A DNA stretch of 64,000 nt, from the NCBI RefSeq assembly GCF_014203355.1, contig NZ_JACHIR010000001.1, positions 372,001 through 436,000 on the forward strand. The letters are read 5' to 3'. The translations under genes were made by a program, and so were the position numbers. Below are positions 7,799-21,077 of this stretch, piece by piece. Origin of the DNA: Kutzneria kofuensis (GTDB taxonomy: Bacteria; Actinomycetota; Actinomycetes; Mycobacteriales; Pseudonocardiaceae). Numbering within the stretch: the stretch's first letter is position 1; the number at the start of each line of letters is the position of its first letter. The notes under the pieces were generated by a model. The model ran no database searches, was not told the DNA's origin, and saw only the letters and a program-made list of their open reading frames with translations.

Positions 7799-9190
7799 CT
7801 ACTGCACCGCCCCGGCGTTGGTGATCAGGGTCTGGTACCAGCTCGCCCAAGGGGTGTTGGTGGCCGGGTAGTTGGCCAACGGGTTGGTGGCGTCGCCGGC
7901 GGAGTCGAAGTCCCAGCCGCGGACGAGATGCCCGGACTGCCGGGCGGACACGATGAAGGACGAGTCGGTGGCGGGGGCGGCGTAGAACAGCGCTCCCTGC
8001 TGCAACACGGAATTGTCGCCGTCCTGGAACTCGTCGAAAGCGGTTTGCTGGTAACGGATGCGGCCGCCGGTGAGGGAAGCGGTGGTGTACCGCAAGGTCT
8101 GCGACTCGGTGGGGCCGTCGGCGCCGGTGTAGACGGTGATGCTCCGGCCGGCCGCGGCGGCGGAGGACTTGGCCAGCAGGGCGGCGGAGGTCCTGGCGTT
8201 GCCGGTCCAAGTCACGGTGGAGCCGGACAAGGCGCCCTGCCACGTCCAGTTCTGGCTGCTGCTCTGGCTCTTGTGGATCTCCACCAGCGTGCCGGCGCCG
8301 GTGAAGGCGACGGTGGGAGTGACGCCGTTGTCGTACTGGTGGCTGGCCTGCCAGGTGATCTCGCCGTCGGAACCGAGCTGGCCGACATGGGACCAGAGGG
8401 TGGTGGCGGTCTGCGACTGGTGCACCTCGACCAGCTGACCGGCGTCGTTCAAGGCCACGGCAGGAGTGATGCCGGTGTCGTACTTGCCGTGACGAAGCCA
8501 GGTGACGGTGCCGTCGGCGGCGTAGACGCCGGTCCAGTACCAGAGGGCCCCGGCGCCGGAGTCGTGGACCTCGACGATCTGGCCACGGCTGTTGATCGCC
8601 ACGGCGGGGTGGTAGCCGACATCCCGCTTGTACTCGGTACGGCTGCCGGAGTCGCCGGAAAGCAGGGTGAGCACCCGGCCCCGCAGCGAATCGACGGAAG
8701 GCGAACCGACGTAGTCGGCGGGGTGCAGGAGGCTGGACCCGAAGGCGGCCTGCAGCTCCTGGTTGAGAGCGGTCAGGTTGCCGGCGGCGAAACCGGCGTT
8801 GTCGGTGAGGTTGTCCTTGAGGTCGAGCATGACAACCAGCGGCGCGTGCGTGGGATGGGCGTCGGACCAGCCGGCGATGACGCCGAGCCAGTCGTGCAGC
8901 AGGTTGGACGCGGGGTTGCCGGCATGGTCGACCAGGTCGCCAGGACTGCTGTGCCCGATGGAGTAGTCGTGGTTGGCGGCGTAGTCGTTGTCATGCACGT
9001 CGAGCTCGATGAACCGGGCGCCGTGGTCGAGCTGGTACGGGATGGAGTTCTTGGCGCCGTCCACGTTGCCGGAATAGCTGTTGTGCGTCGCCAGGAACAC
9101 CGAGCTCACGAACGGCTGGCTCGCCTGCGGGCCGGCGACCAGGGCGGAGGCTGCGGTCAATGCGGTCAGTAACGCGCCGAGACGGTTCAT
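7799..9190 (-). CDS. Secreted PI-PLC X-domain protein with three C-terminal repeats
   Basis: Predicted exported phosphatidylinositol-specific phospholipase C-like protein, 463 aa. A signal peptide covers about residues 1-24. The catalytic barrel starts with FLATHNSYSGN, with His36 as likely general acid/base, followed by ARFIELDVHDND and a second His at 80 (SIGHSS), the two-histidine arrangement of the family. After the barrel, roughly residues 205-340 hold three repeats of about 46 aa with the pattern PAVA-N-GQ-VEVH-S-W-TW, then the chain returns to SARQSGHLVRGWDFDSAGDATNP. The repeats look like an inserted beta-propeller or lectin-like module. Bacterial PI-PLCs cleave PI or GPI anchors; substrate here is not established. 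Start ATG 9190. Confidence 0.83.
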   Translation of the reverse strand: MNRLGALLTALTAASALVAGPQASQPFVSSVFLATHNSYSGNVDGAKNSIPYQLDHGARFIELDVHDNDYAANHDYSIGHSSPGDLVDHAGNPASNLLHDWLGVIAGWSDAHPTHAPLVVMLDLKDNLTDNAGFAAGNLTALNQELQAAFGSSLLHPADYVGSPSVDSLRGRVLTLLSGDSGSRTEYKRDVGYHPAVAINSRGQIVEVHDSGAGALWYWTGVYAADGTVTWLRHGKYDTGITPAVALNDAGQLVEVHQSQTATTLWSHVGQLGSDGEITWQASHQYDNGVTPTVAFTGAGTLVEIHKSQSSSQNWTWQGALSGSTVTWTGNARTSAALLAKSSAAAAGRSITVYTGADGPTESQTLRYTTASLTGGRIRYQQTAFDEFQDGDNSVLQQGALFYAAPATDSSFIVSARQSGHLVRGWDFDSAGDATNPLANYPATNTPWASWYQTLITNAGAVQ

Positions 9191-9275
9191 CCTGCGTCCT
9201 CGCTGGGCCGAATGGTCATGGCGCAGCCCATCCTGACGGCCCGGGCGCGGCGGCGGCCATCGCCCGGATGAACAG

Positions 9276-12200
9276 TCACGGACCGGTGTGGATCAGCGAC
9301 GCCCACAGGTCCGGGCGGCCGGGATGGGCCTCGCGGAGGTCCAGCGCGACGCGGCGCAGGGCGGAAGCCGGCGTGTCCTGGTCGACGAAGCGGTAGAAGG
9401 AGCGGGCGGCGACGGCGGCGATCCGGTCCTCCACCGGCCACAGGCTGGCGACGACGTGCCGGAAGCCGGCGAGCTGGAACGCGGACGCCGGATGGATCGC
9501 CTCGTCCTCGGCGCGAATGCCCCGGTTGCCGGTCGAACACGCCGACAGATACGCCAGTTCGGCGCTGCCCAGCCGCAGCTGCCCGATGGTCGGCGCGGAG
9601 AGCACGCCGTCGTGCAGGTGCAGGCCACCGGCGGTCGGAAACATCGGATTCGTGCCGGCGTGGCAGGCGAAGTGGGCCCAGGTGGCCTTGGGCAGTGCCG
9701 CCAGCACGGCGGCCACGGAAGCGCGATCGTCGCGCAACGGCGCCATGTTCCCCCACTGGTCTTGCAGTTCGTCGGCCTCGGCGACGGTGCCGGGAAGATC
9801 GGGCAGACCCGGCGTGTGGCGCAGGGCGACCGTGAGTTGCCGCCGCGCGCCGCTGGGGGTGCGCGTCCGCGCGTCGGCCAGGGTGCGCACGGTCGCGGTG
9901 TACGAGGACGTCACGGCATCCAGAGCGCCGGGCCGGCCGGGATGGCCGGCGGCGTGCAGCGGGAGGACGCCGAGCAAGCCGGTGGGCATCCACCACACCC
10001 GCCGCGTCGGCAACGCGTCGACCACCGGCGAGACCACGGTGTCCCACAACCACGCCAACACCTCGGGCACGATCCGCTGTCTGCGCAACGTGTTGACGAG
10101 ACCGGGCACGTGGGTGACCTCGAGCAGCGAACCGGCGTGCCGCAGGACGTCCGAGAAGCGCAGTTCGGGCAAGGGAATGAGCCGCAAGTCGGACGGTGTG
10201 ACGATCACGGCGTCCGCACGGTGCGAAGAAGCGTTGACGAGAACGATCGCGCCACCGGCCGCGGCCGAACGCAGGTCGGGCAGCGACGGCGCCAGCAGGA
10301 ACTGCGCGAACCCCGGAAGCCGCCGGATTTCGGCCAGCAACTCGTCGTGCCGGAGCCACAGGGCACGGCGCTGCTCGGTGCGCGAGGCGAGCTCGACCGT
10401 CGACCGGCTGGGCCCGTCGATGGCGTTGAGCCGGTCTCGGACCTGGCCGAGCCGACGGGCGAGTTCCGGTTCGACGCGGGCGAGTTCGGACAGATCGGTG
10501 CGGAGATCCAGCCGGGACGCCAGCATGATCCCCCGGCCCGACTCCGCGACCGTCACAGCACCTCCGGCATCGCCGGTGGCGCAGTGCGCGCTGATCGCCG
10601 CGCCGATCAGTCCCGGATAGCTGCCGAGGCGAAACTCCTGGTCCACCCAATCGCCCTCGCGCGGCGGCACCGTCGACAGCAAGGCCACGGCGTCGTCCAG
10701 CAGCGACACCGCCGTTTCCGAGTCGCCGACGTCGAGCGCCAGCTCCCCCACCGCGTAGCCGAACCGGACCCGGTCGGCCGGCGCGGCGGCGGCGAGCTCA
10801 TCGACCACGCGGACAAGACCGCGCAGCCGCACGGGATCGAAGCCGCCCGGATCAGCTTCATGCAGGGCCTGGTAGTTGTGCGCGAGATTGGCCACTGCGA
10901 GGGGGCGTTTCCAGTCGCCGTCCGGGAGAGCCGCCACGGACTGTTCACTCAGCTCGACCGCCCGGTCCAGGTCGGCCCGGTTGCCGTCGCGCCGGTGGCG
11001 AGCGCCGTAGCTGCCGGCCAGGTTGGCCAGTATGCCGGCTCGTTCGGTGTGGGTGTCGGGTATGGCGGCCAGCGCCCGTTCACCGAGTTCGACGGCCCGG
11101 TCGAGATCGGCGGGCAGGTGGTCCCGGAAGTAGCGCCTGACGTACCCGATGCTGAGGTGGGACAGCAGGTCGGGGTAGTCGTAGCGGCCCTCCGGCGTGC
11201 CCTCGACCGCTCGTTCGCCCGCCCAGATCGCCCGGTCGAGCTGCGCCGGCACGCCCGTGCGCTCGAACAGCTCGGTGTACGCCGGTGTGAGCCCGGCCAG
11301 CTGCCTCGCGTGGTCCGGATGGTCGGCCGGCGTCAGCCGCACCGCCAGCTCCGCCAGCTCCACCGACCGCACCAGATCGATCAGCACGCCCAGCCGCCCG
11401 TACCTGCTCCAGTGCGCCCTGCTGAGCCCGGCCAGGCGCTGTGGCCGGGCCGGGCTGCGTTGGGTCAGCGTCGCCATGCCGGCGGCCTGGATGTCCACCG
11501 CGAGGTCCAGATCCGCCGTGTCGCCGTCATGGGCGTAGTGCTGGAGATGGGCGTTGGCGACCGTGCTCGAGCCGCCGTGAGCGGTCTCCGCGCGCGCCTC
11601 CTCCAGGCGTTCGATGCGGCGCAGGTCCTCCGGGTCGCCGCGATGACGGTGACGATGCTGAAGCGACTGGACCAGGTTGCCCACGTACCTGGTCCAGACG
11701 GCGCTCCCCTCGGGCGCCGCCGCCACGGCCCGTTCGCCGACCTCGATCGCCCGGTCCAGGGCGGCGGTGTCGCTGGTGAGCTCGAACCGAGCCCGGTAGG
11801 CGAGGCCGAGGCTGGACAGGTTGTCCAGTCGGACCAGGTGCCGTGGCGGCGCCGTGGCGTCGATCTGCTCGCCGAGTTCGATGGCACGGTCGAGGTCGGC
11901 GAGGTTGCCGGTGCGTTCGTGCCGTTTTCGGCGGAGGTAGGCGAGATTGTGCTGGACACCCGGACGGTGGTGGTCGTTCTCGGGCGTTTCCGCCACCGCC
12001 CGTTCGGCGTGCCGAATGGCCCGGTCCAGGTCCCCCACGTCGCCGGCACGGTCGTAACGCTGCCCGTAAGCGGTGGCCAGGCTCGACCGATAGACCGCGG
12101 CGCCGCCTTTTCGGCCGGACACCGCCTGTCGGCCCAGAACGATGGCCCGGTTCAGGTCGGATCCGTTGTGCAGCAGTTCATACCGTTTCCGGTACACCAC

Positions 12201-12584
12201 GGAGAGGTGGTACAGGGTGTCGGCCCAACCGTGGGCGCGGGGGGACAACGCCGCCAGCACCTGCTCCCCGTAGTAGACGGCGTTGCGCAGGTCGGCGGGG
12301 TCGTCTCCGATGTCGTACCGGGCGGAGTACGCCCGGCTCAGGTTGAACACGCAGCCGGCTCGACGCGGATGCCTTCGCGGGCAACGCCGAACGGCGTCGT
12401 CGAGCAGCGCGATGCAGGCGTCGAGCAGCGCCGGATCGCTGCCGAGCGACTGGCTCGCCGTCAGCAACTCGCCCGCGAGATCGGCCTGCCGGTCGACGGT
12501 CGGCACTTCGCCGGGCACGAGACCCGGGCCGGACGAGGAGAGGATTCCCTTCGCCAGTTCGGCGTAGTACTCCGGATCGCGCAC
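9276..12584 (-). CDS. TPR-CHAT (caspase-like) protease
   Basis: Large 1102-aa protein with a C-terminal CHAT domain, a caspase/separase-related cysteine protease fold. Residues about 1-700 are a solenoid of tetratricopeptide-like repeats with the recurring phrase DLDRAIELGE about every 45-50 residues. The CHAT domain follows: AHFACHAG contains His971 and His975, the latter in the place of the catalytic His, and YLSACSTGN contains the nucleophile Cys1016; ASLWPVED is the usual closing motif. The GTG at 12584 is the only plausible start after an upstream in-frame stop. Family members act in programmed cell death and antiphage systems (Craspase TPR-CHAT, gasdermin activation). The divergent Cys-motif and membrane genes (12687-13949) are candidate partners. 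No signal peptide, so cytoplasmic. Confidence 0.9.
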   Translation of the reverse strand: MRDPEYYAELAKGILSSSGPGLVPGEVPTVDRQADLAGELLTASQSLGSDPALLDACIALLDDAVRRCPRRHPRRAGCVFNLSRAYSARYDIGDDPADLRNAVYYGEQVLAALSPRAHGWADTLYHLSVVYRKRYELLHNGSDLNRAIVLGRQAVSGRKGGAAVYRSSLATAYGQRYDRAGDVGDLDRAIRHAERAVAETPENDHHRPGVQHNLAYLRRKRHERTGNLADLDRAIELGEQIDATAPPRHLVRLDNLSSLGLAYRARFELTSDTAALDRAIEVGERAVAAAPEGSAVWTRYVGNLVQSLQHRHRHRGDPEDLRRIERLEEARAETAHGGSSTVANAHLQHYAHDGDTADLDLAVDIQAAGMATLTQRSPARPQRLAGLSRAHWSRYGRLGVLIDLVRSVELAELAVRLTPADHPDHARQLAGLTPAYTELFERTGVPAQLDRAIWAGERAVEGTPEGRYDYPDLLSHLSIGYVRRYFRDHLPADLDRAVELGERALAAIPDTHTERAGILANLAGSYGARHRRDGNRADLDRAVELSEQSVAALPDGDWKRPLAVANLAHNYQALHEADPGGFDPVRLRGLVRVVDELAAAAPADRVRFGYAVGELALDVGDSETAVSLLDDAVALLSTVPPREGDWVDQEFRLGSYPGLIGAAISAHCATGDAGGAVTVAESGRGIMLASRLDLRTDLSELARVEPELARRLGQVRDRLNAIDGPSRSTVELASRTEQRRALWLRHDELLAEIRRLPGFAQFLLAPSLPDLRSAAAGGAIVLVNASSHRADAVIVTPSDLRLIPLPELRFSDVLRHAGSLLEVTHVPGLVNTLRRQRIVPEVLAWLWDTVVSPVVDALPTRRVWWMPTGLLGVLPLHAAGHPGRPGALDAVTSSYTATVRTLADARTRTPSGARRQLTVALRHTPGLPDLPGTVAEADELQDQWGNMAPLRDDRASVAAVLAALPKATWAHFACHAGTNPMFPTAGGLHLHDGVLSAPTIGQLRLGSAELAYLSACSTGNRGIRAEDEAIHPASAFQLAGFRHVVASLWPVEDRIAAVAARSFYRFVDQDTPASALRRVALDLREAHPGRPDLWASLIHTGP

Positions 12585-12686
12585 CGGCGCGGCCGGCTGG
12601 TGCTCTTTCGCCGCCGGCCGTTCGCCATCGTTCCAGACGGTGTCGATGCGATCATTTTATCGCCGAGCGTCCCGGAAAGGAGCCGA

Positions 12687-13034
12687 ATGGACGCACAGGA
12701 GCGGCTCGCGCTCACCACGCTGTGCTGCGAACTGGCCGAACTCCGGCGGGAGTGCGCGGAACAACCCGAACGGCGGCAACGCCTGCTCGCGCGGATCGAG
12801 GCCGAGGCCGCCGCGCGACGGCCGATCCTGCCGCTGTTGGCCGAACTGCTCGGTGTCGACGGGGAGGAAACCCTGCGCACGGCCGGCGCCGGCCTGCCCG
12901 GCGCCGGGCCGGGACAGGCCGACGAGGAGTCGTTCGCGTGCCCGGACGGCGCGTGCGATCGCGTCGAGGGCACGACCCCGGCGGGCCCGATCCCCCGTTG
13001 CCTGCTGACCGGCCGGCCGATGCGGCGGCGGTGA
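12687..13034 (+). CDS. Small Cys-motif protein paired with CHAT protease
   Basis: I cannot assign a named family. The 115-aa product has an N-terminal helical half (residues 1-60, charged and Leu-rich, LALTTLCCELAELRREC) and a compact C-terminal motif FACPDGACDRV followed by PIPRCLLTG. Cys85, Cys90 and Cys105 could bind zinc with a fourth ligand elsewhere, or form a redox or protease-target motif. A strong Shine-Dalgarno AAAGGAG precedes the ATG at 12687. It diverges from the TPR-CHAT gene and ends three bases before the membrane-protein gene, so the two are co-translated. From context it may be an adaptor or sensor linking the protease to the membrane effector, or a CHAT substrate. Role inferred. 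Confidence 0.8.
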   Translation: MDAQERLALTTLCCELAELRRECAEQPERRQRLLARIEAEAAARRPILPLLAELLGVDGEETLRTAGAGLPGAGPGQADEESFACPDGACDRVEGTTPAGPIPRCLLTGRPMRRR

Positions 13035-13037
13035 CGG

Positions 13038-13949
13038 ATGGGCGACTTCTTCAAGACCCTGGCGACAAAGCTGGCCGAGCGCTGGGTCACGCTGCTCGTG
13101 GTGCCAGGGGCCCTGCTCGTGTTCGCCGCCTGGGTGGGCGGGCGGCTGAGGCAGGCGCACGCGCTGGATTGGGCTGCGCTGCAAGGAGATCTGGCGGCGA
13201 CCGTGGCCGACCTGACCCGCCAGTCCTGGGCGACGCAAGCAGTGCTCGTGATCGCGGCGCTGCTGGTGTCGACCGGCGTCGGTCTGGCCGTGCAGGCGCT
13301 GGCCGGCGTGACGAAGATCGTCTGGCTCGGCCAGTGGCCGCAACCGCTCCGGTGGCTGGCACGGTGGCGGACCTCTCGACGCGTCCGCCGCTGGTATCGA
13401 CGGCTCGAACGGCGACGCGAGCTGGAACGGGCCCATCCGGCGGAACAGCGCACGCCGGAGCAGCAGCGGCAGATCAACGAGGCTGCCGCCCGCGTGAATC
13501 GATTGTGCTGGGCGGAACCCGGGCGGCCGACGTGGATGGGCGATCGGGGCCACAGCGTGGAAAAGATCATCTTGGACCGCCAGGGCCTCGATCTGGCCTT
13601 CGCGTGGCCCCGATTGTGGTTGGTGCTGCCCGAAACTCCGCGTGCGGAGATCACCGCCGCCAACGCCGCGTTCGCGGCCGCCGTGGCGACCGGCACGTGG
13701 GCGGTGCCGTACCTGCTGCTGGGAATCATGTGGTGGCCGGCCGCGGTGGCGGGCCTCGTCGTCGGCGTGACCGGCTGGGTCCGCGGCCGCAGCGCCGCCT
13801 CGGAACTTGCCCTGTTGACCGAGGCGACACTGGACCTGCACGGGCGGACGCTGGCCGTGGCGCTCGGCGTGGCCGCCGAGGACACGGTCGGTCCGCTCGA
13901 ACTCGAGGAGGGTCAGCGGATCAGCACCATGGCGCGCAAGGGACGCTGA
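13038..13949 (+). CDS. Multi-pass membrane protein of the CHAT module
   Basis: Predicted integral membrane protein, 303 aa. Hydrophobic spans are at about residues 15-35 and 67-92, then a long basic cytosolic stretch rich in Arg and Glu (112-160), then a conserved-looking block PTWMGDRG and LDLAFAWPRLWLVLPE (about 170-200), and two further spans around 210-255. The C-terminus is soluble and acidic. The segment WMGDR...WPRLWLVLP recalls conserved hypothetical membrane proteins of actinobacteria; I know no biochemical function for them. It starts three bases after the upstream gene. In a death-module reading this would be the pore or membrane-damaging effector released by CHAT proteolysis. That role is hypothesis. 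Confidence 0.8.
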   Translation: MGDFFKTLATKLAERWVTLLVVPGALLVFAAWVGGRLRQAHALDWAALQGDLAATVADLTRQSWATQAVLVIAALLVSTGVGLAVQALAGVTKIVWLGQWPQPLRWLARWRTSRRVRRWYRRLERRRELERAHPAEQRTPEQQRQINEAAARVNRLCWAEPGRPTWMGDRGHSVEKIILDRQGLDLAFAWPRLWLVLPETPRAEITAANAAFAAAVATGTWAVPYLLLGIMWWPAAVAGLVVGVTGWVRGRSAASELALLTEATLDLHGRTLAVALGVAAEDTVGPLELEEGQRISTMARKGR

Positions 13950-14756
13950 TCACGACAGGAACTTGAGCACCTCCGCATAGAACGCCTCGGGCCGCTCGAC
14001 GTGCCCGATGTGGCCGCAGTTCTCGATGACCCGCAGCCGCGAGGACGGCAGCCCGTCATGCAGCATCCGAGCCCAGCGCGGGCCGCAGATGACGTCCTTG
14101 TCCCCGGCGACGACCAGCGCCGGCGCGGGAATGGTCGGCAGCTGGTCGCGGACGTCGAACGGCACGTCCTGGCCTCGGGAGGGTGCGCTCCAGATGCGGG
14201 TGGCTGCCCGGAACGGCTCGAACTCCGCGCGCCAGTCGGCGAAGTACGCCGGCAGGATGGTGCGCAGCACGCCGGTCAGCTCCTCGTCGGTCATCTCGGC
14301 GTGCTGCGACGTGAACGCGGCGAGGACCTCGCTGCCGCTGTGCTGGATGTTGGCGACGGCGTCGCCGAAGAACTCGGCGCCGGTGACGGGCGAGGTGTCG
14401 TAGAGCACGAGCGCGTCGACGAGGTGCGCCAGCGCGTACTTCAGCGCGACGAAGCCGCCGTGCGAGTGGCCGAGGAGCGCGACCGGGCCGTCGTCGAGGT
14501 CCTCCACGACGGCGTGCAGGTAGCGCACGTAGTTGTCGAGCGTGTAGTCGGCGTCGTTCGCCAGCCGGCCGGACTCGCCGGTGCCGATCGGCTCGACGTA
14601 CACCATGGTCAGGTGCTCCTCCAGCGGCCGCATCCGCATGTACTCCCAGCCGATGCCGGGGCCGCCGGAGTGGGCGACGCAGATCGGGCCGCGACCGGCC
14701 ACGTGGTAGCGCTGCTCGACGCCGTCCAGCTCGATGGTGTGGGTGGTGAGGGTCAT
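13950..14756 (-). CDS. Alpha/beta hydrolase (proline iminopeptidase-like)
   Basis: Cytoplasmic alpha/beta-fold hydrolase, 268 aa. The oxyanion-hole region is SGGPGIGW, the nucleophile Ser lies in the elbow GHSHGGF, the acid is the Asp in GDKDVICGP and the catalytic His is in NCGHIGHVERP. The GGPG motif and overall layout resemble proline iminopeptidases and related esterases. I start at ATG 14756, preceded by GGCGGAG; the longer reading to 14792 would need a TTG. It is the last gene of a likely minus-strand operon after the ECF sigma gene, and its stop abuts the convergent membrane-protein gene with no gap. Substrate unknown. Confidence 0.88.
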   Translation of the reverse strand: MTLTTHTIELDGVEQRYHVAGRGPICVAHSGGPGIGWEYMRMRPLEEHLTMVYVEPIGTGESGRLANDADYTLDNYVRYLHAVVEDLDDGPVALLGHSHGGFVALKYALAHLVDALVLYDTSPVTGAEFFGDAVANIQHSGSEVLAAFTSQHAEMTDEELTGVLRTILPAYFADWRAEFEPFRAATRIWSAPSRGQDVPFDVRDQLPTIPAPALVVAGDKDVICGPRWARMLHDGLPSSRLRVIENCGHIGHVERPEAFYAEVLKFLS

Positions 14757-19037: not shown

Positions 19038-19101
19038 CGGTCACGGCTTCCCCCGATATCCTCGCCCGCCGCGAATTCGGACGAGGGGGAAGCCGTGACC
19101 G
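19038..19101. repeat. 17-bp perfect inverted repeat enclosing the helD-like start
   Basis: Arm 19038-19054 (CGGTCACGGCTTCCCCC) is exactly complementary to 19085-19101, with 30 bases between. The right arm holds both the Shine-Dalgarno (GAGGGGGAA) and the GTG start at 19095. A TATCCT -10-like box lies at 19057-19062 between the arms. Read as RNA it would sequester the ribosome site; read as DNA it is a two-site operator straddling the promoter. A match of this length is far beyond chance. Confidence 0.75.
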
Positions 19102-21077
19102 CCGAGCAGGAACTGGTGTCCGAACGGGATTACCTGGACTACGCGCACGTGTGCCTGAGGCAGAGCCGCAAGCAGCTGCGGGAGCTGGCGGAACGGGCTC
19201 GCAAGCGGCCGGGTGACGAGTTGATGGTGGAGTGGCTGGAGTGGCGGGCGGACCAGCTGCGCGACGCCAACGAGTCGCCGCTGTTCTTCGGACGCATCGA
19301 CGGCCCGGAGCCGAAACCGTGCTACATCGGCCGCCGCTACGTGAGCGACGAGCGCGACGAGCCGGTGGTGATCGACTGGCGCACGGACATGGCCAGCCGG
19401 TTCTACCGGGCCAGCCCGTCGAACCGGATGGAGGTGACGCGCCGCCGCCGGTTCGGCTTCGACGGCGTGGTCCTCACCAGCTTCGACGACGAGCCGCTGA
19501 CCGAGGAAACCGCCGACACGGGCCTGAGCCGGCTGGTGATCGCCGAGATCGAACGCGCCCACTACGGCCCGATGCGCGACATCGTCGCCACCATCCAGCC
19601 CGACCAGGACGAAATCGTCCGCACGGAACTGGCCAGCACGCTGATCGTGCAGGGCGGCCCGGGAACCGGAAAGACGGCGGTCGGCCTGCACCGGGCCGCC
19701 TACCTGCTCTACGAACACAGCCGCCTGCGCCGCGAGGGCGTGCTGGTGGTCGGCCCGAACGACACGTTCGTCCGCTACATCTCCCGTGTGCTGCCGACGC
19801 TCGGTGAGAGCCAGGTGGTGCACAGCTCGGTGGACGGGCTGGTGGCGGACCGCGGGAAACCGGTGGTCGAGGAGCCGGAAGTCGCGACGCTGAAGGGCGA
19901 TGCGCGGATGGCGGAAGTGCTGCGCCGGGCCGTCTGGTCCGGGCTGCGGCTGCCGACCGAGGACATCCTGGTCCGCGAGACCAGTCCGTACGTGCGGATC
20001 CCGCCGTACGTGGTAGCCGAGCTGTGCTCGGATCTGATCGACCGCCAGGTGCCGCTGGCCCGGGCCCGCGAGCACCTGCTCGAACGGGCCGTCAGCCACG
20101 TCCGCCGCAACCTGGAGGAGCGCGGCCACGCCCTCACCGACGGCGAGGCGCGACGGCTGCTCCGCGCGAAGTCGTTGCGGGACTTGGTGAGCACGGTGTG
20201 GCCGACCGTCACGCCGGCCCAGGTGCTGTTCACCCTGCTGACGGACGCCGACGCCCTGCACCGCGCCGCCGACGGCGTGCTGACCGACGAGGAGCAGAAG
20301 GCCCTGCTGTGGCCGACCGTGCCCGCGTCGGCGGGCCGGGCCAAGTGGTCCCCGGCCGACCGGTTCCTGATCGACGAGATCGCCGGCCTGATGACCCCGC
20401 CCGACCGCTACGGCCACGTGGTGATCGACGAGGCGCAGGACCTGTCGCCGATCCAGCTACGGGCGATCATGCGCCGCTGCGCCGGCTCCGCGACCCTGCT
20501 GGGCGACATGGCCCAGCGCACGACGCCGTGGGCCGCGGGCAGCTGGGCGGCGGTCGCCGAGCACCTCGGCGTGGCGACCGATCTCGTACGGCTGACGACC
20601 AGCTTCCGGGTGCCGCGCGAGATCATCGAGGTGGCGAACGCCCTGCTGCCCGCGATCGCGGACGACCTGCCGCCGACCGTCTCCGGCCGGCACGTGCCGG
20701 GCGCGCTGGCCACCGTCGAATGCGAGGACGTGCTGGCCGAGCTGGTGGACGTGCTGCGCGCCGCCGAGCAGCACCCCGACAGTGTCGGGATCGTGCTCGA
20801 CGACGCGCGCTTCACAACCGTGGCCAAGCACCTGGCCAAGGCCGGCGTGCAGACCGGGCTGCCGCACGAGGACGGGGCCGACCACAAGGTGTCCCTGGTG
20901 CCGGTGGGGCTGGCCAAGGGCCTCGAGTTCGACCACGTCGTCGTGCTGGAGCCGGCGGAGATCGCCGCGGCCGGCGCGACCGGCCTGCGGCTGCTCTACA
21001 TCGCGCTGACGCGGGCGATCTCCCGGCTCACCGTGCTCCACTCCCGGCCGCTGCCTCAGCTGTTGGCCAGCAGGTAG
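19095..21077 (+). CDS. HelD-like superfamily 1 helicase (RNA polymerase recycling / rifamycin protection type)
   Basis: UvrD/Rep-type SF1 ATPase of 660 aa with the HelD architecture. An N-terminal coiled-coil (about residues 1-65) that enters the RNA polymerase secondary channel is followed by PVVIDWRTDMASRFYRAS, then Walker A GGPGTGKT at 187-194, Walker B with VVIDEAQDLSP, motif III GDMAQRTTPW, motif IV TTSFR and the motif VI region LYIALTRA. Class II HelD proteins of actinobacteria dissociate stalled RNA polymerase complexes, and the Streptomyces relative HelR displaces rifamycins. I do not recognise a rifamycin-associated element upstream. The GTG at 19095 lies in the right arm of a long inverted repeat. 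The 3' end overlaps the convergent RCC1-like gene by 22 bases. Confidence 0.87.
   Translation: MTAEQELVSERDYLDYAHVCLRQSRKQLRELAERARKRPGDELMVEWLEWRADQLRDANESPLFFGRIDGPEPKPCYIGRRYVSDERDEPVVIDWRTDMASRFYRASPSNRMEVTRRRRFGFDGVVLTSFDDEPLTEETADTGLSRLVIAEIERAHYGPMRDIVATIQPDQDEIVRTELASTLIVQGGPGTGKTAVGLHRAAYLLYEHSRLRREGVLVVGPNDTFVRYISRVLPTLGESQVVHSSVDGLVADRGKPVVEEPEVATLKGDARMAEVLRRAVWSGLRLPTEDILVRETSPYVRIPPYVVAELCSDLIDRQVPLARAREHLLERAVSHVRRNLEERGHALTDGEARRLLRAKSLRDLVSTVWPTVTPAQVLFTLLTDADALHRAADGVLTDEEQKALLWPTVPASAGRAKWSPADRFLIDEIAGLMTPPDRYGHVVIDEAQDLSPIQLRAIMRRCAGSATLLGDMAQRTTPWAAGSWAAVAEHLGVATDLVRLTTSFRVPREIIEVANALLPAIADDLPPTVSGRHVPGALATVECEDVLAELVDVLRAAEQHPDSVGIVLDDARFTTVAKHLAKAGVQTGLPHEDGADHKVSLVPVGLAKGLEFDHVVVLEPAEIAAAGATGLRLLYIALTRAISRLTVLHSRPLPQLLASR

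What the first reader, a model, noticed from the sequence alone, without database searches (positions are those of the whole stretch)
9276..13949. Divergent TPR-CHAT protease / Cys-motif adaptor / membrane protein module
Seen: an 1102-aa TPR-CHAT protein with intact His975 and Cys1016, divergent from a 115-aa protein with CPDGAC...RC and a three-base-spaced multi-pass membrane protein. Known: TPR-CHAT proteases switch on cell-death effectors in type III-E CRISPR and gasdermin systems. Inferred: the TPR solenoid senses a trigger, CHAT cleaves the small or membrane protein, and the membrane is breached. Neither partner is a gasdermin, so this could be a new bacterial caspase-like suicide circuit.
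Basis: partly seen in the sequence, partly recalled or inferred. Interest (0 to 1): 0.78.

Follow-up and report, generated by a model that had tools for sequence, protein, structure and literature searches.

The report
Conserved CHAT protease, zinc-adaptor, membrane-protein module
Many soil actinobacteria carry the same three-gene set, a separase-like protease, a small zinc protein that it probably cuts at one conserved arginine, and a membrane protein, which looks like an undescribed protease-triggered membrane switch, perhaps a suicide switch.

Summary
In detail: genes at 9276-12584 (-), 12687-13034 (+), 13038-13949 (+), protease His/Cys intact. The module is real: of 156 distinct loci found through the membrane protein, 141 have a CHAT gene nearby, 142 the small Cys gene just upstream, 135 both, against about 0.014 CHAT expected. 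The His/Cys pair is kept in all 142 distinct CHAT proteins. Four same-genus genomes have an empty site exactly where the three genes sit.

New here: an arginine in the small protein's otherwise variable linker (137 of 143). The four small proteins that lack it beside a CHAT gene all meet a CHAT without Asp1053; with the Arg, 5 of 132 lack Asp1053. Asp1053 ranks first of 342 CHAT columns. So the small protein is the likely substrate or active-site ligand. Three independent losses are too few for a tree-aware test.

Membrane breach and cell death are inferred; no defence neighbourhood was seen here. The window's two partner proteins match no Pfam, NCBIfam or PADLOC family above cut-off.

The parts
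9276..12584 (-). TPR-CHAT protease gene, 1102 aa; His975/Cys1016 dyad; Asp1053 in LWPVED
   Evidence: CHAT 2.8e-44; His/Cys 152 of 152; Asp1053 143 of 152; duplicates included
12585..12686 (.). 102-bp divergent intergenic region between the CHAT gene and the small gene; no sigma-70-type or terminator match
12687..13034 (+). 115-aa small protein: N-terminal part (helical by my reading) with Cys13, variable linker with Arg64, C-terminal zinc-ribbon-like part (Cys85, Cys90, Cys105)
12876..12878 (+). codon of Arg64, the proposed CHAT cleavage (P1) or active-site docking residue
   Evidence: conservation; correlation with CHAT Asp1053; cleavage itself is inference
13038..13949 (+). 303-aa multi-pass membrane protein; its start overlaps or closely follows the small gene's stop in most relatives; conserved PTWxGDR and WPRLW motifs in the long middle loop and a C-terminal RKGR in close relatives
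9258..13949 (.). whole module as an insertion/deletion unit, about 4.69 kb; absent at the same site in four same-genus genomes

Best explanation
The three genes are one functional module. The TPR solenoid holds the CHAT protease off until it binds a trigger (inferred). The active CHAT then cuts the small protein in its linker at the conserved arginine (Arg64), between the N-terminal part and the zinc ribbon (supported by conservation and correlated change, not shown). The small protein is made just before the membrane protein and probably binds and gates it (inferred from gene coupling). The cut changes the state of the membrane protein, most likely opening or perturbing the cytoplasmic membrane and stopping the cell's growth, as an abortive stress or anti-invader response (inferred). 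Rough likelihoods: one module 0.95; small protein is the CHAT substrate 0.6; membrane protein is the effector 0.5; defence or suicide is the use 0.4.
For: Co-occurrence: CHAT in 67 of 80, 15 of 16 and 59 of 60 distinct loci of three sets, with expected 0.014 per window. CHAT position varies (124 divergent upstream, 7 same-strand upstream, 14 same-strand downstream, 7 opposite-strand downstream of the membrane gene, window and duplicates included), so the link is kept through rearrangement. The small genes were picked by a Cys pattern at the expected place, which alone hits 53 of 788 other gene starts; but a profile from 26 small proteins recognises all 117 others at E 0.01 or better and none of the 53 control frames. 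Small homologues: 19 of 21 places lie beside the membrane gene. Empty site. Plasmid copies. Dyad 152 of 152. Linker Arg in 55 of 58 aligned rows while the six neighbouring columns vary (entropy 0.38 against 2.6-3.5 bits), and in 137 of 143 distinct small proteins. Loss of that Arg goes with loss of CHAT Asp1053: 4 of 4 against 5 of 132, Fisher p 9e-6. Asp1053 is first of 342 CHAT columns; second is A973, two before the catalytic His; the best of 279 membrane-protein columns reaches only p 0.0097. Craspases cut Csx30 after Leu, Met or Ala (PMC11106740, abstract and passages), and the two distinct Csx29 sequences displayed have Ser at the 1053 place; I did not match those chains to the cut sites one by one.
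Against: Only three independent losses of the linker Arg exist and one sits on a long branch; the tree-aware pair test cannot reach significance with so few. With Arg hidden from the aligner only 17 of 60 Arg fall in column 64. Shuffled linkers hold an Arg in 49 of 60 cases anyway, so its presence alone is a modest signal, and Thr shows a similar excess. Five Arg-bearing loci also lack Asp1053. After thinning to 75 representatives p is 3e-4, about 0.1 after correction for the columns tested. Asp1053 is not the separase P1 residue: D2151 aligns to our position 1057, which is Ala here (the residue count is mine). No effector activity, trigger or phage link was shown. The window's neighbours are not a defence island.
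Confidence: 0.5

Rival explanations
1. The small protein is a securin-like inhibitor: its linker Arg sits in the CHAT active site as a pseudo-substrate and keeps the protease off; the real substrate is the membrane protein or another protein.
For: The same correlated changes between linker Arg and active-site columns are expected. CHAT resembles separase, which securin inhibits (PMC9729208, passages).
Against: In linkers with a single Arg the next residue is Gly, Thr, Ser or Ala in 30 of 38, as in a cut site, but this is weak because the linker is rich in Gly and Ala.
Confidence: 0.2
2. CHAT cuts the membrane protein in its basic middle loop, and the small protein is only an adaptor.
For: Long middle loop rich in Arg/Lys (24 K+R between residues 86 and 225), with conserved PTWxGDR and WPRLW motifs.
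Against: The basic stretch is missing in many of the homologues shown, and no membrane-protein column follows the loss of the linker Arg as CHAT 1053 does (best p 0.0097 of 279); the second point bears only indirectly on this rival.
Confidence: 0.1
3. The module is a regulatory or developmental protease circuit of filamentous actinobacteria, for example membrane-stress signalling, and not a suicide or defence system.
For: Found only in actinobacterial genera in a scan for close relatives over one genome per bacterial and archaeal species and rare in a phylum sample (2 of 198 genomes, this one included, both of the window's class); no defence system recognised beside the window copy; no phage or viral-contig copies found.
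Against: Patchy within genus and family (74 of 297 genomes), empty sites, several copies in some genomes and plasmid copies fit accessory conflict genes better than core signalling.
Confidence: 0.25
4. The neighbourhood is inherited by descent only and the three genes do not work together.
For: CHAT genes are common in these genomes (186 matches in 30 genomes).
Against: CHAT changes side and strand while staying close, the unit is gained or lost whole, and replication in a second family gave 59 of 60.
Confidence: 0.03

Closest known systems
Type III-E CRISPR Craspase (Csx29 TPR-CHAT with substrate Csx30)
   Same: TPR-CHAT protease of the separase-like group with His/Cys dyad, paired with a dedicated partner protein; best solved relatives of our CHAT profile
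   Different: NCBIfam Csx29 model scores 13.5 bits against a cut-off of 300; Craspase cuts non-conserved sites after Leu, Met or Ala (PMC11106740, abstract and passages), whereas here one Arg is conserved
Bacterial gasdermin with a TPR-CHAT protease (recalled; mentioned in passages of PMC9729208)
   Same: CHAT protease beside a protein that could act on membranes
   Different: The membrane protein here is multi-pass, with no family match in Pfam above cut-off and no solved-structure match; a separate small zinc protein is present
Eukaryotic separase with securin and Scc1
   Same: CHAT resembles separase (weak profile matches to 5fc2, 5fby and 5fc3, E 0.75-0.92); separase cuts Scc1 after Arg (PMC4626109, passages and one section)
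   Different: The separase P1 residue D2151 aligns to an Ala here; the acidic residue that changes with the linker Arg lies four residues earlier
Borvo (CHAT phage-defence protein; named in a table passage of PMC10952713)
   Same: CHAT domain
   Different: Borvo's partners are not described in the passage seen; P0003 has no PADLOC match, and I did not check whether that library holds Borvo
Caspase/TPR multi-gene conflict systems of multicellular bacteria (EACC and MoxR-vWA ternary systems; PMC8195603 and PMC7159879, passages)
   Same: Multi-gene, protease-centred systems in filamentous bacteria
   Different: In the passages seen neither paper describes a CHAT, zinc-ribbon small protein and multi-pass membrane protein set; the word search found no CHAT domain in PMC7159879

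Membership tests
CHAT peptidases (PF12770) | CHAT domain over the curated cut-off | tested here: met
   152.2 bits against cut-off 24
CHAT peptidases (PF12770) | Catalytic His and Cys | tested here: met
   H975 and C1016; 152 of 152 module CHAT proteins, 142 of them distinct
CHAT peptidases (PF12770) | TPR repeats fused to CHAT | tested here: inconclusive
   TPR_10 20.1 bits against 27.5; TPR_2 and TPR_14 also below cut-off
Type III-E Craspase / Csx29 | Csx29 model NF041237 | tested here: not met
   13.5 bits against 300
Type III-E Craspase / Csx29 | Cas7-11 and Csx30 encoded beside it | not tested
   no dedicated search; ten window neighbours carry no PADLOC match of that name
Bacterial gasdermin system | Gasdermin-fold partner | tested here: inconclusive
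   no sequence match to gasdermin for either partner; the fold could not be predicted
Zinc ribbon | Cys pattern able to bind zinc | tested here: met
   three Cys in 60 of 60 dereplicated small proteins, partly by construction because a Cys pattern picked them; 117 of 117 non-seed small proteins match a profile of 26; Zn_ribbon_8 matches 3 of 40 members, best E 3.2e-6; zinc itself not shown
Separase-type Arg-cutting protease | Acidic residue equivalent to separase D2151 | tested here: not met
   position 1057 is Ala in P0003 and Ala, Val, Thr or Pro in 118 of 152 module CHAT proteins (equivalence counted by hand)

The most novel reading that the evidence does not exclude
An undescribed actinobacterial protease-triggered membrane switch: a CHAT protease whose residue 1053 reads the substrate cuts a zinc-stapled adaptor after a conserved arginine, and this unlocks a new family of membrane effector, a third CHAT-driven death circuit besides gasdermin and Craspase. 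The zinc may be shared between Cys13 of the N-terminal part and the ribbon: of 56 aligned small proteins the four with another residue at column 13 (L108, L110, L111, L112; one clade by their membrane proteins and Cys pattern) are those with a complete four-ligand ribbon.
Probability: 0.38. Interest if true: 0.85.

Novelty: new variant of a known kind. Interest (0 to 1): 0.7.

Why it matters
CHAT proteases are common in these genomes (0 to 24 matches per genome in 30 genomes), and few of their substrates are known (recalled). A conserved partner with a predicted single cut residue, and a matching position in the protease, turns this into a test that one gel could decide. If the membrane protein is the effector, it would be a membrane-acting output of a bacterial caspase-like protease that is not a gasdermin by sequence.

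Tried and rejected
Cleavage site in the membrane protein's basic linker: rejected as the main idea because the stretch is missing in many of the homologues shown. Separase-like P1 pocket at the D2151 position: rejected, Ala here. Arg conservation alone as proof: weakened by the masked-alignment test (17 of 60 at column 64 when Arg was hidden) and the shuffle test (56 of 60 linkers with Arg against 49 expected, 4 of 2000 shuffles as high; Thr gave a similar excess). Defence-island enrichment: only ten window genes were scanned (a UvrD-like helicase and a weak CARF3-type match were the only hits), so the general question is open. Known family for the partners: the window's own two proteins have no Pfam, NCBIfam or PADLOC match above cut-off (DUF5798 16 bits against 27 for the small one); some distant small proteins match zinc-ribbon models; no membrane-protein family; solved structures gave only chance-level matches for the small profile (best E 0.12) and none for the membrane profile. 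First named-genome scan with one protein found nothing. Literature: nine searches, of which seven bear on this gene set (two searches were on separase); their listings showed no paper on this set, and the library lacks most subscription papers and all preprints.

Selections and drops: about 90 distinct places in 74 genomes matched; 80 were fetched and about ten weak ones were not. In one search the best 60 places of 82 matching genomes were fetched. Eleven named loci were removed as duplicates before the distinct counts, recognised by equal contig lengths; still include them. L055 was counted as Arg-bearing by hand because its Arg lies just outside the counting window; otherwise the count of Arg-lacking loci without Asp1053 is 4 of 5. 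Small genes were picked by a Cys pattern and later checked with a profile and a control. Distinct loci without a CHAT match (15): L042 and L132 cut by contig ends (TPR part present), L049 and L084 at contig ends, L047 and L080 with a broken or partial membrane gene, L100 with an NB-ARC-CHAT protein about 2.5 kb away, and L056, L075, L079, L089, L102, L103, L104 and L165 without one. L114 was counted as lacking the small gene although tblastn finds it.
Full report
What is there. The three genes are as described. The CHAT gene runs 9276-12584 on the minus strand, the 115-aa gene 12687-13034 and the 303-aa membrane gene 13038-13949 on the plus strand, with three bases between the last two. Pfam finds CHAT in the first at E 2.8e-44 and nothing over its cut-offs in the other two; PADLOC finds nothing, and NCBIfam only a sub-threshold Csx29 match to the CHAT protein. 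The window lies in a 10.4 Mb genome whose family holds Amycolatopsis, Saccharothrix, Lentzea and Actinokineospora (equal contig lengths), so probably Pseudonocardiaceae (family name of a named Amycolatopsis locus).

Is it a module? I searched the membrane protein in 297 genomes of the family: 74 have it. Eighty places were fetched with about 9 kb on each side where the contig allowed. A second family was searched as a replication: 82 of 297 genomes, and the best 60 places were fetched. One contig of this family has the length of a named Streptomyces contig. A scan of named genomes gave 27 loci in Amycolatopsis, Nocardia, Lentzea, Actinomadura, Saccharothrix, Streptomyces, Nonomuraea and Actinokineospora, of which 16 were not duplicates. 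A CHAT gene is present in 67 of 80, 59 of 60 and 15 of 16 of these, the small Cys gene in 70 of 80, 57 of 60 and 15 of 16, and both in 135 of 156. The background is 186 CHAT matches in 30 picked genomes of 256 Mb, or 0.014 per 18.9-kb window. In 137 of the 141 CHAT-bearing loci the CHAT frame lies within 1.5 kb of the pair (stop-to-stop frames, a lower bound on distance). CHAT is usually divergent and upstream, but can be downstream or on the same strand.

Are the small genes real relatives? They were picked as frames ending near the membrane gene's start with a three-Cys pattern. The same pattern at 788 other gene starts in these loci hits 53 (6.7%), so the pattern alone is not proof. A profile built from 26 of the small proteins recognises all 117 other distinct ones at E 0.01 or better (114 at 1e-3) and none of the 53 control frames at E 1.

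Reverse test. The small protein was sought in 294 genomes of the family: 21 places, of which 19, the window's own included, lie just before a membrane-protein hit; the other two are weak (E 3.7e-4 with three stops inside, and 8.9e-4). In most relatives the small gene's stop overlaps the start of the membrane gene by four bases or lies within a few bases of it (overlap of four in 73 loci, duplicates included), which suggests translational coupling.

Mobility. In four same-genus genomes the two flanking genes are adjacent: the window's left flank aligns up to 9192-9257, the right flank resumes at 13944-13950, and the three genes are absent. Gain and loss cannot be told apart, but the unit is exactly the three genes. 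Eight Streptomyces plasmid records carry the membrane protein. Of the two opened, one shows the divergent order beside transposase genes and the other CHAT, small and membrane genes in one direction. No phage record or viral contig matched. A class sample gave 8 of 148 genomes and a phylum sample 2 of 198, both counts including this genome.

Anatomy of the small protein. Three Cys (85, 90, 105) are present in 60 of 60 dereplicated sequences, partly by construction, and P86, R92 and P103 in 56, 52 and 57. Distant members match Zn_ribbon_8 (3 of 40, best E 3.2e-6). Column 13 is Cys in 52 of 56 filled rows; the four others (L108 F, L110 I, L111 M, L112 V in some order) are those with a complete four-ligand ribbon of the CxxC...Cxx[CH] type. 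A looser count, any Cys 50-110 residues before the ribbon, gave 140 of 143 and is less telling. My inference, from one clade, is that Cys13 is the fourth zinc ligand and that the zinc staples the two halves together across the linker.

The linker arginine. In the 60-sequence alignment column 64 is Arg in 55 of 58 while neighbours vary. The linker length varies, so the aligner itself helps to line up the Arg: with Arg hidden, only 17 of 60 fall in that column. Counting without alignment of the Arg, 56 of 60 linkers hold one against 49 in shuffles (4 of 2000 shuffles as high; Thr is similarly enriched). Conservation alone is therefore suggestive only.

Correlated change. The sharper test asks which CHAT residues change when the linker Arg is lost. 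Of 136 distinct loci with both genes, the window included, four small proteins lack the Arg: L081 and L092 (Lys), L180 (Lys) and L095 (none). Their CHAT proteins carry Ala, Ala, Glu and Ser at position 1053, where 127 of the other 132 have Asp (Fisher p 9e-6). Of 342 CHAT columns 1053 ranks first and 973, two before the catalytic His, second (p 5.5e-5); the best of 279 membrane-protein columns reaches p 0.0097 (146 loci with duplicates). After thinning to 75 representatives the count is 3 of 3 against 3 of 72, p 3e-4, about 0.1 after correction for the number of columns. On the tree the Arg was lost three times and Asp1053 changed six times; L095 sits on a long branch of unsure place, and the pair test has too few pairs to be significant. 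L075 and L079, whose small proteins also lack the Arg, have no CHAT match nearby, but L056 and L089 keep the Arg without one. I read this as evidence that the linker Arg touches the CHAT active site, as substrate or as pseudo-substrate.

What is not supported. Asp1053 is not separase's P1 residue. PMC9729208 (passages) says that separase D2151 is replaced by K670 in Csx29; counting along the alignment, K670 falls on our position 1057, which is Ala. The two distinct Csx29 sequences displayed have Ser at the 1053 place, and Craspases cut after Leu, Met or Ala (PMC11106740), which fits a role of 1053 in accepting a basic residue but does not prove it. The membrane protein's basic linker is absent in many relatives.

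Membrane protein. Three segments are clearly hydrophobic (17-35, 67-85, 226-244), with a long Arg-rich middle loop, motifs PTWxGDR and WPRLW, and a C-terminal RKGR in close relatives. No Pfam model matches more than one of 34 members, and then only at E 0.01 or worse; no solved structure matches. That it is the effector is inferred from its kind and from its coupling to the small gene.

Verdict. A real, mobile, widely kept three-gene module, confirmed in a second family. The likeliest mechanism is cleavage of the small zinc protein by CHAT at Arg64 with the membrane protein as output. The suicide reading is plausible and untested. Seven literature searches on the set found no description of it (listings only, with passages of the papers named above).

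Noticed in passing
L056:11833-15135 (-): Small and membrane genes without CHAT, but near an 1100-aa protein with trypsin-like, nSTAND1, histidine kinase and receiver domains: a possible exchange of the protease, or chance.
   Followed up: partly
L100:3161-6478 (+): NB-ARC-CHAT protein near a membrane gene whose small gene seems broken.
   Followed up: partly
L075 and L079: Small and membrane genes without CHAT and without the linker Arg, followed by a protein-kinase gene (kinase domain checked for L075 only) and a conserved set of further genes.
   Followed up: partly
window 19095-21077 (+): UvrD-like helicase with weak similarity to GajB models, probably an ordinary helicase.
   Followed up: no
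window 7799-9190 (-): Protein matching PI-PLC-C1 (Ca2+-dependent phosphoinositide phospholipase C), conserved at the flank in four same-genus genomes.
   Followed up: no
window 13938-13949: The membrane protein ends in RKGR in all 12 sequences of the close alignment; a Lys/Arg-Gly end recurs in many distant ones shown. Role unknown.
   Followed up: no
G260, G158, G295 and G706: Some genomes hold several copies of the membrane gene (four distinct places in G260; three each in G158, G295 and G706).
   Followed up: no
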